Positions 3,329-7,232 of a DNA stretch of 7,232 nucleotides are shown here, in pieces. The stretch is from Candidatus Helarchaeota archaeon (lineage in GTDB: Archaea > Asgardarchaeota > Lokiarchaeia > Helarchaeales > HEL-GB-A). The position numbers and the translations under genes are program-made. The notes under the pieces were generated by a model. That model had not been told where the DNA came from, did no database searches, and worked only from the letters and a program-made list of their open reading frames with translations. Numbering within the stretch: the first letter of the stretch is position 1; each line of letters begins with the position of its first letter. Location: positions 1-7,232 of the forward strand of contig JABXJU010000216.1 of NCBI GenBank assembly GCA_013375405.1. Direction: 5' to 3'.

Positions 3329-4447
3329 TTACTCACCTATTCCACAACAATTTCCAACGCCTGCTATAATGATATTATCACCTTCAGAGGTCCGGGTGGT
3401 AATTGCTGTTTTAATTTTCTTTATTGCTTTTGGGATACTATTCACCAGGTCTTTTGTCATCGCACCCAGGGCATCCTCCTGAGCCTCTTCAATGACAATG
3501 CCATCCATGGGCAGTTCATATTTCACACCAGCGGACTCCTCTATTTTGTATTTTTCAACTCCGGGGCCGCCAATAACCGCTCCGACGCCCTCAATGATGG
3601 TTCCAGTCTTTTCACCCTCAAGTTTCAATCCGGCATCAATCATGATGAGGCGTGCAATAGTTCCTTTTTTCTCTTCAACTAGCTTCTCAATGGCTTTTCC
3701 AGGTTTTCCAACGCGAGCCCCAGGGCCAGTTGCTCGAATAAGAAAGACGTTTCGGCCCTCGATTTCCATTTCAGTTAGAGTTATATCTTTTGTATATTCC
3801 TTTATAATTTTTGGAGGAGATTTATCTCTATATTCATGAATGAGAGTGGAAACAACAAACGGTCCAATTCCATCACCGATTGGTTTGCCCTCGCTAAAGG
3901 CTTTCAAGGCTTTAAAAATTGCTTTCGCCAGTTGCATGATTAGTGGAAGTTGCATCTGAAGTTGCATAATTAAGATGAGACTCTTCGTTTTCTTTCCAAG
4001 TAACAGATAATGCCGGATGATTTTATAAATCATATTAACTGAACTTGCCGCTTCGACTGTTCCTTCGATATCAGCGGCTTCATCTCGTGAGGCAGCAGGG
4101 GCAAATTGTTTCACATGCCCTTCCCATCTCGATTTTCTGATATCTAGAATATGTTCAAGACGATTAACTATGCCTCCAGGGTCTATATTAACAGGCATTA
4201 TCGTAAAAAAGTCCAATAGGGAATTCAGCATTGGACGAGGATCCTCTTTCGGTTTTCCTCTTTCATTTACTAATTTTACAAGAATTTCCTTTCCTTCATT
4301 GTTCATTCGCTCTAGCTCGTACATCGCCCGTTCTACTTGTTTCTGCATCATCCACAATTGCATTCGCTGGTTATAAAAGAAAATAACAAAAAAGAACACA
4401 AGAAATATTATCTGAAATATCCAAGAGAATTCATTATACGGTTGCAT
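3329..4447 (-). CDS. DUF1512 family membrane-anchored protein
   Basis: I match this to DUF1512, an archaeal family of about 370 residues with no established function; the match is from memory of the family. One N-terminal transmembrane segment (about 8-25) is followed by a basic, helical, coiled-coil-like stretch (28-60) and a long soluble domain. Visible landmarks are LDFFTIMPVNIDPGGIVNRL (78-97), a helical block rich in Met, Gln and Leu (157-175), a glycine-rich segment ATGPGARVGKPGKAIEKL (239-256) that resembles a phosphate-binding loop without being a Walker A, and GVGNCCGIGE at the very C-terminus with a Cys-Cys pair (367-368). Length is 372 residues, full for the family. It heads a probable three-gene operon ending in coaD. 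A TATA element about 25-35 bases before the ATG and the lack of a ribosome site suggest a leaderless mRNA. Confidence 0.85.
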   Translation of the reverse strand: MQPYNEFSWIFQIIFLVFFFVIFFYNQRMQLWMMQKQVERAMYELERMNNEGKEILVKLVNERGKPKEDPRPMLNSLLDFFTIMPVNIDPGGIVNRLEHILDIRKSRWEGHVKQFAPAASRDEAADIEGTVEAASSVNMIYKIIRHYLLLGKKTKSLILIMQLQMQLPLIMQLAKAIFKALKAFSEGKPIGDGIGPFVVSTLIHEYRDKSPPKIIKEYTKDITLTEMEIEGRNVFLIRATGPGARVGKPGKAIEKLVEEKKGTIARLIMIDAGLKLEGEKTGTIIEGVGAVIGGPGVEKYKIEESAGVKYELPMDGIVIEEAQEDALGAMTKDLVNSIPKAIKKIKTAITTRTSEGDNIIIAGVGNCCGIGE

Positions 4448-4792: not shown

Positions 4793-4806
4793 CTTTTTTA
4801 AAATAA
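4793..4806 (+). promoter_or_regulatory. Candidate TATA box for the permuted 5S rRNA
   Basis: The run CTTTTTTAAAATAA is a good archaeal TATA element. Its centre lies about 25 bases before G4825, the first base of the long flanking stem. The primary transcript would therefore begin exactly at the stem, which supports the stem being part of the designed precursor. Confidence 0.55.
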
Positions 4807-4839
4807 TAACACCTTCTTAGGATAGGATTAGATTTGAGT

Positions 4840-4987
4840 TGAGATTCACGCCGAATCAAGCTCTCACACGTTGCGATTGGTACTGTAGTACGAGAGTCTA
4901 CGGAAAGGTCGTAAAGCTGAACTTCGGCTCGGTCATAGCTGAGAGGTAATACCCGTTCTCATCCCGAACACGGCAGAGTGGATCTCA
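4840..4987 (+). other. Bulge-helix-bulge splicing motif joining the two ends of the permuted 5S precursor
   Basis: The outer helix pairs TGAGATTCAC (4840-4849) with GTGGATCTCA (4978-4987), ten pairs with one G-U. Next come the central 4-bp helix GCCG (4850-4853) with CGGC (4971-4974), the bulge AAT (4854-4856) on the 5' strand and the bulge AGA (4975-4977) on the 3' strand. On each strand the order is helix, central helix, bulge, which is the geometry of archaeal tRNA splicing sites. Cutting after the second bulge base releases 4856-4976. No extended helix is seen on the core side, so it is a one-sided (hBH-type) motif. The central helix competes with 5S helix III and would have to open after splicing. 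Confidence 0.82.
4856..4976 (+). rRNA. rrf: 5S ribosomal RNA, circularly permuted gene
   Basis: This encodes the 5S rRNA of the large ribosomal subunit with its halves in swapped order. In gene order: 3' strand of helix II (4861-4866), helix V (4871-4878 with 4907-4914), loop E and helix IV (4885-4888 with 4898-4901), helix I 3' strand (4915-4921), one base (C4922), helix I 5' strand (4923-4929), loop A with the conserved GGTCATAG (4931-4938), helix II 5' strand (4940-4945, six perfect pairs with 4861-4866), and helix III with CCCGAACACGG in loop C (4963-4973). The arm GGTACTGTAGTACGAGAG (4879-4896) matches the usual archaeal 3' half. The new ends lie in loop B. Rejoining 4976 to 4856 gives ACACGGCAG|TCAAGC, as in normal 5S, with a total of 121 nt. 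No conventional 5S copy is in the window. Whether the product stays circular or is opened at C4922 is not visible. Confidence 0.9.
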
Positions 4988-5057
4988 TGCTGACAAATCT
5001 AATCCACCTTTCCCCTCCAAACTTTTATATTCCATCTCATCGAACCAAGCAGAGGAT

Positions 5058-5067: not shown

Positions 5068-5144
5068 CTTTGAAAAATACAATTCCATAGATATACATTT
5101 CAACATGGGGCTGTAATCTAGCCAGGTATGATGCTGGGCTCCAG

Positions 5145-5209
5145 AAGGATCTATAAAATAGGGTCTGCTGACGAAAGGATGACGAACTTTTGGAGCGATT
5201 CCTGGTGAG
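5145..5209 (+). other. tRNA-Trp intron 1 (position 37/38, 65 nt)
   Basis: The canonical archaeal intron site. The BHB reads: exon helix CTGGG:CCCAG; central helix C32-T33-C34-C35 against GGTG (5204-5207) with a T33-T mismatch; bulges AGA (5143-5145) and AGA (5208-5210); intron helix AGGA (5146-5149) with TCCT (5200-5203). Cuts after G37 and before A38 leave a seven-base anticodon loop. Confidence 0.82.
5145..5209 (+). ncRNA. Possible box C/D guide RNA encoded by the tRNA-Trp intron
   Basis: CTGA (5168-5171) is a perfect D box. Just before it, GGGTCTG (5161-5167) is complementary to CAGACCC, positions 35-41 of the spliced tRNA. The base five upstream of the D box (G5163) faces C39, so the N+5 rule predicts methylation of C39. 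ATGACGA (5179-5185) is a six-of-seven C box, and CTGG (5202-5205) is a weak D'. A second stretch TGGAGC (5191-5196) complements 31-36, including C34, but its spacing to the weak box does not fit C34. Introns of tRNA-Trp in haloarchaea and others are known to guide methylation at 34 and 39. Read as a circle, the box order here is C, D', (C'), D. Confidence 0.55.
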
Positions 5210-5215
5210 ACCCAG

Positions 5216-5247
5216 GGAAATGTAACATAAATGTTCATTTCTGGTAG
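5216..5247 (+). other. tRNA-Trp intron 2 (variable region, 43/44, 32 nt)
   Basis: The hairpin GAAATG (5217-5222) with CATTTC (5236-5241), continued by AACA/TGTT, forms the intron body. The central helix pairs ACC (5210-5212) with GGT (5243-5245). Cutting AG|G (5214-5216) and AG|T (5246-5248) leaves a five-base variable loop TATTC. The central helix has one mismatch, so the boundaries are likely but not certain. Confidence 0.7.
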
Positions 5248-5263
5248 TATTCAGGGGTTCAAG

Positions 5264-5293
5264 AAATCTGCCGGAGGATCGGCGATTTGAAAA
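5264..5293 (+). other. tRNA-Trp intron 3 (T loop, 59/60, 30 nt)
   Basis: A clean BHB. The central helix TTCA (5258-5261) pairs with TGAA (5288-5291). The bulges are AGA (5262-5264) and AAT (5292-5294). The intron helix is AATC (5265-5268) with GATT (5284-5287), then GCCG with CGGC and a six-base loop. Removal gives the T loop TTCAAGT. Confidence 0.85.
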
Positions 5294-5320
5294 TCCCCTC
5301 AGCCCCATCCTAGCTCTTAT

Positions 5321-5424
5321 GGGCGGGTAGTCTAGTCTGGCTATGATTCTGGGTTTGGGACCCAGAGGTCGTGGGTTCGAAAAACCCTCCAAAGGATGTG
5401 GGTTCGATAATCCCATCCCGCCCA
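5321..5424 (+). tRNA. tRNA-Pro (TGG anticodon) with a T-loop intron
   Basis: Decodes CCA and related proline codons. The acceptor strands GGGCGGG (5321-5327) and CCCGCCC (5417-5423) pair perfectly, with A73 at 5424. The D stem GTCT is at 5330-5333. The anticodon stem CTGGG (5349-5353) pairs with CCCAG (5361-5365), the loop is TTTGGGA and the anticodon TGG is at 5356-5358. The variable loop is AGGTC. The T stem GTGGG (5371-5375) pairs with CCCAT (5412-5416). The T loop is broken by a 29-base intron. The anticodon arm has none. It follows tRNA-Trp by 13 bases and ends 33 bases before the next coding region. CCA is not encoded. Confidence 0.92.
5382..5410 (+). other. tRNA-Pro intron (T loop, 59/60, 29 nt)
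   Basis: The central helix TCG (5377-5379) pairs with CGA (5405-5407) beside one T-T mismatch. The bulges are AAA (5380-5382) and AAT (5409-5411). The intron helix is AACCC (5383-5387) with GGGTT (5400-5404), and TCC with GGA above it. Removal gives the T loop TTCGAAT. The intron holds a second copy of GTGGGTTCGA (5398-5407), identical to the T-arm start at 5371-5380. Confidence 0.85.
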
Positions 5425-5457
5425 CCTACAAGATAGAAAAAATTATGGGAAAACAAG

Positions 5458-6624: not shown

Positions 6625-6674
6625 AATCTTCATGCAGAAGATTAAGCGAGAAGAAGCACGCCGGGGTCGCTCAA

Positions 6675-6744
6675 GGCGCGGACTGGGACGCCCGTGCTGG
6701 TAACGCCTGGTTACAATTGTAACTATGATGATGGAATGACCACA
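6675..6744 (+). other. tRNA-Met D-arm insertion, probably two introns (boundaries approximate)
   Basis: Between GCTCAA (6669-6674) and AGCG (6744-6747) there are about 60 bases too many. TGGTAA (6698-6703) looks like the G18-G19 part of the D loop. TGGT (6698-6701) pairs with ACCA (6739-6742), and GTGC (6694-6697) with GCGC (6745-6748), like a BHB that removes about 6704-6744. A first insert of about 21-23 bases (from 6675, with GGCG/CGCC arms) would lie before TGGTAA. A palindrome GTTACAATTGTAAC occupies 6710-6723. Confidence 0.6.
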
Positions 6745-6758
6745 GCGCCGGACTCATA

Positions 6759-6794
6759 AGGTAAGAACATTAATGCAATTTAACGGCCTGTGAA
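6759..6794 (+). other. tRNA-Met anticodon intron (37/38, 36 nt)
   Basis: Central helix CTCA (6753-6756) against TGTG (6789-6792), with the same T33-T mismatch seen in tRNA-Trp. The bulges are TAA (6757-6759) and AAA (6793-6795). Removal leaves the seven-base loop CTCATAA. Confidence 0.82.
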
Positions 6795-6825
6795 ATCCGG
6801 AGATCGTGGGATCAAAGCCCACCCC

Positions 6826-6854
6826 ATCATAGAAGATAACCTTCATGAGGTGAA
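6826..6854 (+). other. tRNA-Met acceptor-stem intron (68/69, 29 nt)
   Basis: A fully canonical BHB. The central helix CACC (6820-6823) pairs with GGTG (6849-6852). The bulges are CCA (6824-6826) and AAC (6853-6855). The intron helix is TCAT (6827-6830) with ATGA (6845-6848), then GAAG with CTTC around an ATAAC loop. Removal joins C68 to C69 and restores a perfect seven-pair acceptor stem. Confidence 0.9.
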
Positions 6855-6928
6855 CGGCACTTATAGGGGCCCACGATTAAAATGCACTGGTAGAGTAAGC
6901 TATTGGGCAGGGGTAGCCAAGCCTGGTA

Positions 6929-6962
6929 AACGGAAACTGGAACGTGGGTCAGTTTATCAGCC
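6929..6962 (+). other. tRNA-Leu D-loop intron (about 34-35 nt)
   Basis: AAACTG (6934-6939) pairs with CAGTTT (6950-6955) in the insert. AAACGG occurs on both sides (6928-6933 and 6963-6968), so the exact cut is ambiguous by sequence. The cut shown is supported by CTGG (6923-6926) pairing with TCAG (6957-6960) as central helix. A 35-base excision would instead give the usual D-loop length. Confidence 0.65.
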
Positions 6963-6998
6963 AAACGGCGCTGGACTTAAGATCCAGTCTCGAAGGAG

Positions 6999-7027
6999 AT
7001 TGAAACGACGAGTCGTTTGGACCTGTT
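6999..7027 (+). other. tRNA-Leu variable-arm intron (about 29 nt)
   Basis: The insert folds as AAACGAC (7003-7009) with GTCGTTT (7012-7018). AGG (6994-6996) pairs with CCT (7022-7024) as a three-pair central helix, with bulges AGA (6997-6999) and TTT (7026-7028). Removal leaves a 14-base variable region ending in TCC, the usual size for archaeal tRNA-Leu. The central helix is imperfect, so the boundaries are tentative. Confidence 0.65.
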
Positions 7028-7232
7028 TCCGTGGGTTCGAATCCCACCCTCTGCATTTTAAACCCTTGCATTCCTCCTGAATTTTCCTCTTGTTTCTTCG
7101 CCTCTACTGAGTTAGCTCAGTAAAATAGATAATCTTTAAAAATTAGCATCGGCTTGTTTTCATCAAGTAATAAAAAAATGTAATAATTAGAATTATCACA
7201 TTTTATGAAATCAATCAATTAAAAGCTTACCA

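What the first reader, a model, noticed from the sequence alone, without database searches (positions are those of the whole stretch)
4825..5005. Circularly permuted 5S rRNA gene
The 3' half of 5S (helices V, IV and the 3' strand of I) precedes the 5' half (helices I, II and III). All five helices can be formed with perfect or near-perfect pairing, and conserved loops (GGTCATAG, CCCGAACACGG, GGTACTG) are intact and correctly spaced. The break lies in loop B. Permuted tRNA genes are known in some archaea and algae, and permuted 5S rRNAs in brown-algal mitochondria; I know of no archaeal permuted 5S rRNA, so this appears new, though I cannot search.
Basis: partly seen in the sequence, partly recalled or inferred. 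Interest (0 to 1): 0.97.

Follow-up and report, generated by a model that had tools for sequence, protein, structure and literature searches.

The report
Permuted, likely circular archaeal 5S rRNA
In this Asgard archaeon, and in 138 of 227 related genomes searched, the gene for the ribosome's 5S RNA is written with its two halves in swapped order, and the transcript is predicted to be cut and sealed into a small circle by the enzymes that splice tRNA.

Summary
At window 4845-4980 a complete 5S rRNA is encoded with its 3' half first. Helix I is closed by a short hairpin loop, and the gene is open at the loop B/helix III border. The flanks pair into a canonical bulge-helix-bulge (BHB). Rejoined, it scores 67 bits against a profile of conventional 5S; as written, 32 and 19 in two pieces. 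The form occurs in 138 of 227 Asgard genomes searched, including single-contig chromosomes, and its helices covary strongly. BHB pairing at the register that restores normal spacing is gene-specific (outer helix of at least 5 bp in 56 of 129; 3.2 on average after swapping strands). 60 genomes have conventional genes; the 21 of these placed on a tree fall in four clades. All 30 genomes checked have the splicing endonuclease, 28 have RtcB. Expression, circularity and use in the ribosome are inferred. My searches found no report of permuted 5S in archaea. This may explain why 5S genes could not be predicted in Heimdallarchaeum.

The parts
4794..4806 (+). TATA-like element (TTTTTTAAAATAA), probable promoter of the 5S unit
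   Evidence: Sequence; TATA-like hits also peak 45-65 nt upstream of the 3' half in relatives (no control for A+T content). Promoter role inferred.
4825..4836 (+). Outer flank helix, 5' strand (GGATTAGATTTG), pairs with 4994-5005
   Evidence: 12 perfect pairs; a change on both sides in Hel_GB_A L006 keeps the pairing.
4840..4849 (+). BHB outer helix h', leader strand (TGAGATTCAC), pairs with 4978-4987
   Evidence: 10 pairs, one of them G-U.
4850..4853 (+). BHB central 4-bp helix, GCCG, pairs with CGGC 4971-4974
4854..4856 (+). BHB 3-nt bulge AA^T at the start of the 3' half; predicted cut after 4855
   Evidence: Geometry; the cut itself is predicted from the archaeal BHB rule.
4856..4921 (+). 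3' half of 5S rRNA (helix II 3' strand, helices V and IV, loops D and E, helix I 3' strand)
   Evidence: R1 model match of the window 58.4 bits.
4915..4929 (+). Helix I closed as a hairpin (AGCTGAACTTCGGCT)
   Evidence: Fold; 74 of 99 distinct hairpins of the set have a 4-nt predicted loop here, 46 of them UNCG; the window's own loop is predicted as 3 nt.
4922..4976 (+). 5' half of 5S rRNA (helix I 5' strand, loop A, helix II 5' strand, helix III, loop C)
   Evidence: (RF00001 aligns this half).
4971..4974 (+). BHB central helix, other strand (CGGC)
4975..4977 (+). BHB 3-nt bulge AG^A at the end of the 5' half; predicted cut after 4976
   Evidence: cut predicted.
4978..4987 (+). BHB outer helix h', trailer strand (GTGGATCTCA)
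4994..5005 (+). Outer flank helix, 3' strand (CAAATCTAATCC)

Best explanation
This is a circularly permuted 5S rRNA gene whose transcript is predicted to be cut at a bulge-helix-bulge formed by its own leader and trailer and ligated into a covalently closed ring of 121 nt that would serve as the ribosome's 5S RNA. Shown: the swapped order, the closed helix I, the BHB geometry, the exact restoration of consensus 5S spacing by the standard cut rule, covariation of the helices, gene-specific splice-site pairing, wide occurrence in the phylum, absence of a second archaeal 5S over the Rfam threshold in 137 of 138 such genomes, and presence of the splicing endonuclease and (28 of 30) RtcB. Inferred: transcription from the upstream TATA-like element, cutting by EndA, sealing by RtcB, and use of the ring without reopening. 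Because helix I is capped by a tight, often UNCG, loop, there is no sign of a site where normal 5' and 3' ends would be made, so a ring is expected to be the mature form.
For: Rejoined score 67.0 bits versus 32.0+19.3 as written, maximum at the BHB-predicted rotation among those sampled. Same gene with compensatory changes in Hel_GB_A. 135 of 227 Asgard genomes match the permuted-core model R2 at E<1e-10, plus G041 and G104 (cut by contig ends) and G115 (copies at contig ends, missed by R2, seen by eye) = 138; 24 of 27 core pairs have double changes, 90.2% of cells paired versus 63.5% in shuffles, 0/500. BHB at the register restoring normal spacing: outer helix of at least 3, 5, 8 bp in 82, 56, 33 of 129 genomes (window 10 bp); after swapping strands between genomes the means are 10.9, 3.2, 1.0 (maxima 20, 8, 4); off by 1-3 nt it falls to at most 22, 14, 4. 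Helix I loop: 74 of 99 distinct hairpins have 4 nt, 46 UNCG. EndA domain in 30 of 30 genomes tested, two matches in 26; RtcB in 28 of 30. The splice site also occurs as a plain intron-like insert in a conventional-order 5S (L208). Precedent: permuted Thermoproteus SRP RNA is sealed into a ring, with a BHB at its termini (PMC4731332, passages read).
Against: No RNA data. 47 of 129 genomes lack a contiguous outer helix of at least 3 bp at the tested register; some of these show other break sites (loop C in G020, G040, G043, G045, G046, with outer helices of only 3-4 bp next to the bulge), a leader hairpin, or 1-nt-different spacing, and some (for example G079, G083, G129, G131) I did not resolve. 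An unconstrained search ranks the canonical BHB first in only 54 of 128. RtcB was not found in G133 and G137, G133 being a single long contig. One genome (G096) also carries a conventional-order 5S with an insert, possibly on a stray contig. 30 of 227 genomes show neither form.
Confidence: 0.8

Rival explanations
1. The transcript is cut at the BHB or by another nuclease but not sealed; the mature 5S is a linear permuted RNA with ends in loop B and a closed helix I, as in brown-algal mitochondria.
For: Closed helix I makes a permuted linear 5S structurally complete; organellar permuted 5S is reported (Valach 2014, recalled, not held; cited in PMC10085705 and PMC11528492, passages).
Against: Leader-trailer pairing has the exact BHB register and restores consensus spacing, which a simple trimming would not need; EndA products in archaea are normally ligated (recalled).
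Confidence: 0.12
2. The ring is only an intermediate: a nuclease opens it at helix I to give an ordinary linear 5S, as permuted tRNA transcripts are opened to ordinary tRNAs.
For: Permuted tRNA genes are processed that way (PMC10085705 passage).
Against: Almost no spacer between the helix I strands: 74 of 99 distinct predicted loops are 4 nt, 46 UNCG, and helix I pairs covary as one hairpin.
Confidence: 0.06
3. Assembly artefact or dead pseudogene.
For: None found beyond the lack of expression data.
Against: Recurs in 138 of 227 genomes, including contigs of 1.39 to 4.94 Mb that make up the whole rounded genome size (G174, G133, G132, G091, G134), with covariation and, over the Rfam threshold, another archaeal 5S in only one of the 138.
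Confidence: 0.01

Closest known systems
Permuted SRP RNA gene of Thermoproteus tenax/uzoniensis (PMC4731332, passages)
   Same: Archaeal structural RNA gene, permuted, ends joined, with a BHB formed by leader and trailer; experimentally a ring in T. tenax.
   Different: Different RNA; reported in two Thermoproteus species; here a ribosomal RNA across much of a phylum, with no RNA data yet.
Permuted 5S rRNA of brown-algal and other organelles (Valach 2014; recalled, cited by PMC10085705 and PMC11528492)
   Same: Permuted 5S; helix I closed (recalled).
   Different: Organelle genomes, no BHB or tRNA splicing machinery known there (recalled); not a cellular genome.
Permuted tRNA genes of archaea and Cyanidioschyzon (Soma 2007/2014, cited in papers whose passages I read)
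   Same: Swapped halves, circular intermediate; BHB at the junction (recalled).
   Different: tRNA ring is reopened to ordinary ends; here no reopening site is apparent.
Circular 23S/16S pre-rRNAs of archaea (PMC12918454, PMC7758197, passages)
   Same: Archaeal rRNA circularised at BHB.
   Different: Their genes are in ordinary order; PMC12918454 says 16S and 23S 'but not 5S' take that route (passage).
5S circRNAs of Halobacterium and Sulfolobus (PMC12558985, passages)
   Same: Circular RNA of 5S sequence.
   Different: From ordinary genes, variable ends, proposed as part of degradation.

Membership tests
5S rRNA (RF00001) | Three-way junction of helices I-V with conserved loops | tested here: met
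   Rejoined window sequence 67.0 bits against a conventional archaeal 5S profile; helices I, IV, V covary at 94.6-97.6% paired cells, helix II at 73.7% in an alignment that misplaces it by one base in some rows.
5S rRNA (RF00001) | Score over Rfam gathering threshold in genomic order | tested here: not met
   33.7 bits versus 38: the model cannot follow the permutation. This is the point of the finding, not evidence that the RNA is no 5S.
BHB-processed permuted RNA genes | 4-bp central helix with 3-nt bulges and outer helix at the junction | tested here: met
   Window: CGGC/GCCG, AGA and AAT, 10-bp outer helix. Across 129 genomes: 82 with at least 3 bp, 56 with at least 5, 47 below 3.
BHB-processed permuted RNA genes | Splicing endonuclease and RtcB in the genome | tested here: met
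   30 of 30 and 28 of 30 relatives tested; window's own genome not held.
BHB-processed permuted RNA genes | Ligated junction seen in RNA | not testable with these tools
   No transcriptome data available.
Organellar permuted 5S | Located in mitochondrial or plastid genome | tested here: not met
   Neighbouring DUF1512 protein is 83% identical to one named Candidatus Helarchaeota.

The most novel reading that the evidence does not exclude
Most Asgard archaea, the closest known prokaryotic relatives of eukaryotes, build their ribosomes with a covalently closed circular 5S rRNA made from a permuted gene; this state is old in the phylum, its break point has since moved (loop B to loop C), and four clades carry the ordinary gene either by reversion or because the permutation was gained repeatedly elsewhere. 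A 5S gene with a BHB intron at the very same site (L208) is a plausible intermediate.
Probability: 0.65. Interest if true: 0.97.

Novelty: new variant of a known kind. Interest (0 to 1): 0.94.

Why it matters
5S rRNA is one of the most conserved RNAs. A permuted gene as the common form across much of a phylum, with a predicted ring-shaped mature RNA, would be new for cellular life as far as my searches go. It may explain why annotation pipelines miss 5S in Asgard genomes: Wu et al. 2022 state that 5S genes 'could not be predicted' in Heimdallarchaeum (PMC8813620, passage). It gives a natural series (conventional, intron-bearing, permuted at loop B, permuted at loop C) for how permuted genes may arise. 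It also makes a concrete structural prediction for the Asgard ribosome, relevant to the origin of eukaryotes.

Tried and rejected
Own genome: not held. Of the ten hits of the genome pattern scan, one is the permuted gene (L006); the Haloarcula (2), Halovenus, Halohasta, Sinisalibacter, Shimia and Acidimicrobiaceae hits are ordinary 5S genes preceded by a chance GTACTG, and L004, L008 and the two viral-collection hits L011 and L012 look like chance matches (by eye). The first covariance model R1 gave partial matches to ordinary 5S (27-38 bits), so R2 was built and the two score groups separated: permuted full-length at least 54.1 bits, ordinary Asgard genes at most 37.1. R2 was trained on genes from this phylum. 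Of the 138 permuted genomes 31 were not R1 hits; of these G083 was in R2's training set and G115 was found by eye, so 29 are independent finds. Control: 392 genomes of the Haloarcula phylum, best 46.0 bits, 92 with E<=1e-6; of the five top loci three could be read (L319, L321, L323) and have ordinary order, two (L320, L322) were cut out wrongly by my script and not checked. An unconstrained search for the best BHB ranks a canonical one first in 54 of 128 (4.9 on average after swapping), so the constrained test was used; a first version with other anchors gave 63 of 131 with at least 3 bp. In one search G017 was also flagged as a loop C break, with no outer helix, and is not counted. Rows dropped before the BHB counts: G178 and G205 (ordinary / false), three weak hits (G056_L147, G068_L148, G047_L144), second copies, and loci without enough flank. 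For the tree, 16 of 103 rows (gappy, of unknown 5S state, or a second outgroup) were dropped. A single clade for all permuted rows is rejected on uL3-uL4-uL23-uL2 (p-AU 2.7e-51, quick tree, LG+G without mixture, tested after the tree was seen), but the tree cannot tell gain from loss. Of the 60 ordinary-order genomes I saw the sequence of only some and used 30 loci in a profile; the others rest on the RF00001 score.

Full report
What is in the window. The window is from a Helarchaeota-like Asgard archaeon: its DUF1512 protein (3329-4447, minus) is 83% identical to one named Candidatus Helarchaeota, and 80% identical to one whose longest contig is 7206 bases, the length of the Hel_GB_A contig L006 (L006). 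Pfam sees a cytidylyltransferase-family protein, an Fe-S protein and a CCG-domain protein (HdrC/HdrB-like, recalled label), a cytidylyltransferase-like protein, and DUF1512; a Thr tRNA is found by ARAGORN. Between the DUF1512 gene and tRNA-like genes lies the reported feature.

The permuted 5S gene. Reading 5' to 3': a 12-base flank (4825-4836), a 10-base helix strand (4840-4849), the 3' half of 5S (from 4856), helix I folded on itself (4915-4929), the 5' half (to 4976), and the partner strands of the two flanks (4978-4987, 4994-5005). Rfam follows only the 5' half, at 33.7 bits, under threshold. A profile of 31 ordinary archaeal 5S genes scores the rejoined sequence 67.0 bits, the written order 32.0 and 19.3 in two pieces; among rotations sampled every 10 nt the score peaks at the predicted one. 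The same treatment of L013 gives 80.2 bits.

A bulge-helix-bulge at the junction. The end of the 5' half (CGGC, 4971-4974) pairs with the start of the 3' half (GCCG, 4850-4853). Each is followed by a 3-nt bulge (AGA, AAT), then a 10-bp helix of leader and trailer. [quoted passage not shown] The rule of cutting after the second bulge base is recalled. It gives 4976^4856 and a ring of 121 nt; the ordinary 5S genes used are 116-121 nt. In Hel_GB_A the same motif is kept through several base changes, with one mismatch in the outer helix.

How general. One pattern scan of the genome collection (84,980 species by its description) gave ten stretches, of which one is the permuted gene, Hel_GB_A. In that genome RF00001 finds the permuted gene (two partial matches) and a chance fragment. 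Its class (83 genomes) and phylum (227 genomes) were then searched. RF00001 gave weak, often adjacent double matches. Models built from the permuted core (R1; R2) show it to be the commonest form: 113 of 227 by R1 at E<=0.1 (six of these are ordinary genes or false), 153 of 227 by R2 at E<=0.1, of which 135 at E<1e-10. The loci of all 135 were fetched and printed or aligned. With two genes cut by contig ends (G041, G104) and G115, whose copies lie at contig ends and were seen by eye, the count is 138 of 227. Within the class it is 65 of 83. RF00001 over threshold is found in 64 of 227. After removing three bacterial-looking matches (G031, G055, G124, by eye) and one that overlaps the permuted gene (G113), 60 genomes have an ordinary-order gene; only G096 has both; 30 have neither; completeness of these genomes is not told. 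In a control phylum (that of Haloarcula, 392 genomes) no match exceeded 46.0 bits, while full-length permuted genes score 54.1 or more.

Structure is under selection. On 92 distinct rows, 24 of 27 pairs have changes on both sides, 90.2% of cells pair (63.5% after shuffling; 35.6-49.0% when slid), covariation score 0.719 versus 0.206. Helix I pairs as a hairpin in 97.6% of cells, helices V and IV in 94.6% and 94.9%, helix II in 73.7%. The alignment was fitted to R1's structure, which leans towards it. The predicted helix I loop is 4 nt in 74 of 99 distinct hairpins, 46 of them UNCG; the window's own loop is of another kind (3 nt, ACT, by that prediction). The splice-site pairing is gene-specific: at the register that restores the normal spacing from GAAC to UUAA, outer helices of at least 5 bp occur in 56 of 129 genomes, 3.2 on average after swapping strands (maximum 8 in 300), and 0-14 when the register is shifted by 1-3 nt. 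Against this, 47 of 129 fail the 3-bp criterion; some have different break sites or inserts, some are unresolved.

Variants. In G020, G040, G043, G045 and G046 the break lies in loop C, with a BHB (outer helix 3-4 bp at the bulge) that would join ACCCGGTC^CATCCGAAC or similar (G039 by eye). In one contig of G096 (L208) an ordinary-order 5S carries a 23-nt insert with BHB geometry at the same site as the common permutation break (CACG GA^A ... CGTG AA^A); an exact pattern search found this form in 1 of 227 genomes. This supports the view that the permutation site began as, or can become, an intron site; that contig may be foreign to the bin.

Evolution. On a tree of uL3, uL4, uL23 and uL2, the 21 ordinary-5S Asgard genomes placed fall in four separate clades among permuted ones (103 rows, 87 rows, fewest changes 4, also without the outgroup). 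One clade for all 65 permuted rows is rejected (p-AU 2.7e-51, quick tree).

Machinery. The tRNA splicing endonuclease domain was found in 30 of 30 genomes tested (24 permuted, 6 ordinary), two matches in 26, and RtcB in 28 of 30 (not in G133 and G137). These genomes therefore can process BHBs; that they do so here is inference.

Literature. Nine searches of the open library: 'permuted 5S' 0 papers; 5S rRNA + permuted + Asgard 9 papers; 5S rRNA + Asgard archaea + circular 17; 5S rRNA + circularly permuted + archaea 17; 5S rRNA + Lokiarchaeo 11; BHB + 5S rRNA 15; Asgard + 5S rRNA gene + intron 3; and two for precedents. I read passages of eleven papers, none whole. None of these passages reports a permuted 5S gene or a circular mature 5S in archaea; one reports 5S circRNAs from ordinary genes. 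Preprints and most subscription papers are not held, so a prior report cannot be excluded.

Verdict. A ring-shaped mature 5S is the best-supported but unproven consequence.

Noticed in passing
L208 (G096:C117:8077-8614, minus strand): Ordinary-order archaeal 5S gene with a 23-nt BHB intron-like insert at the same site as the common permutation break; only such case among 227 genomes by exact pattern. Contig is 9 kb and may be foreign to the bin.
   Followed up: partly
L213 (G212:C15:39693-40244, minus strand): Ordinary-order 5S with an insert of about 32 nt just after GTTAA (by eye), possibly an intron or expansion segment.
   Followed up: no
L028 (G042), also G026, G027, G028, G029, G049, G054: Permuted 5S genes with an insert of about 30 nt in the helix IV/loop E region (core matches of 132-134 nt instead of about 103).
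   Followed up: no
L075 (G061), L065 (G071), L071 (G060): Several permuted genes have an extra inverted repeat in or near loop C (GTTCGGGAAC-like), perhaps an additional intron.
   Followed up: no
L177-L192 (G092-G112 group), leader of the 5S unit: A conserved leader hairpin (CATCTGGATGCGTTCCAGATG-like) lies between the outer flank helix and the central helix, so two alternative BHBs can be drawn.
   Followed up: partly
L107 (G137:C510), G091 C1, G113: Multiple permuted copies: two in tandem about 158 bases apart in G137, two in the 3.33-Mb contig of G091, four on different contigs in G113.
   Followed up: no
window 5105-5310, 5321-5426, 6660-6832, 6906-7056 (+): Four intron-bearing tRNA-like genes by eye (one Trp-like; one with an insert in the T-arm region); ARAGORN reports only the Thr tRNA on the minus strand, Rfam a weak tRNA match at 5327-5390.
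   Followed up: no
window 3329-4447 and 4825-5005 versus L006: DUF1512 gene and tRNA-like genes flank the 5S in both, but the 5S is inverted relative to them in L006. Contig lengths suggest a DUF1512 gene on the 5S contig also in G002, G003, G084 and G173.
   Followed up: partly
L024 (G005): Permuted 5S apparently broken on the 5' side of loop B, a third break site; BHB not resolved.
   Followed up: no
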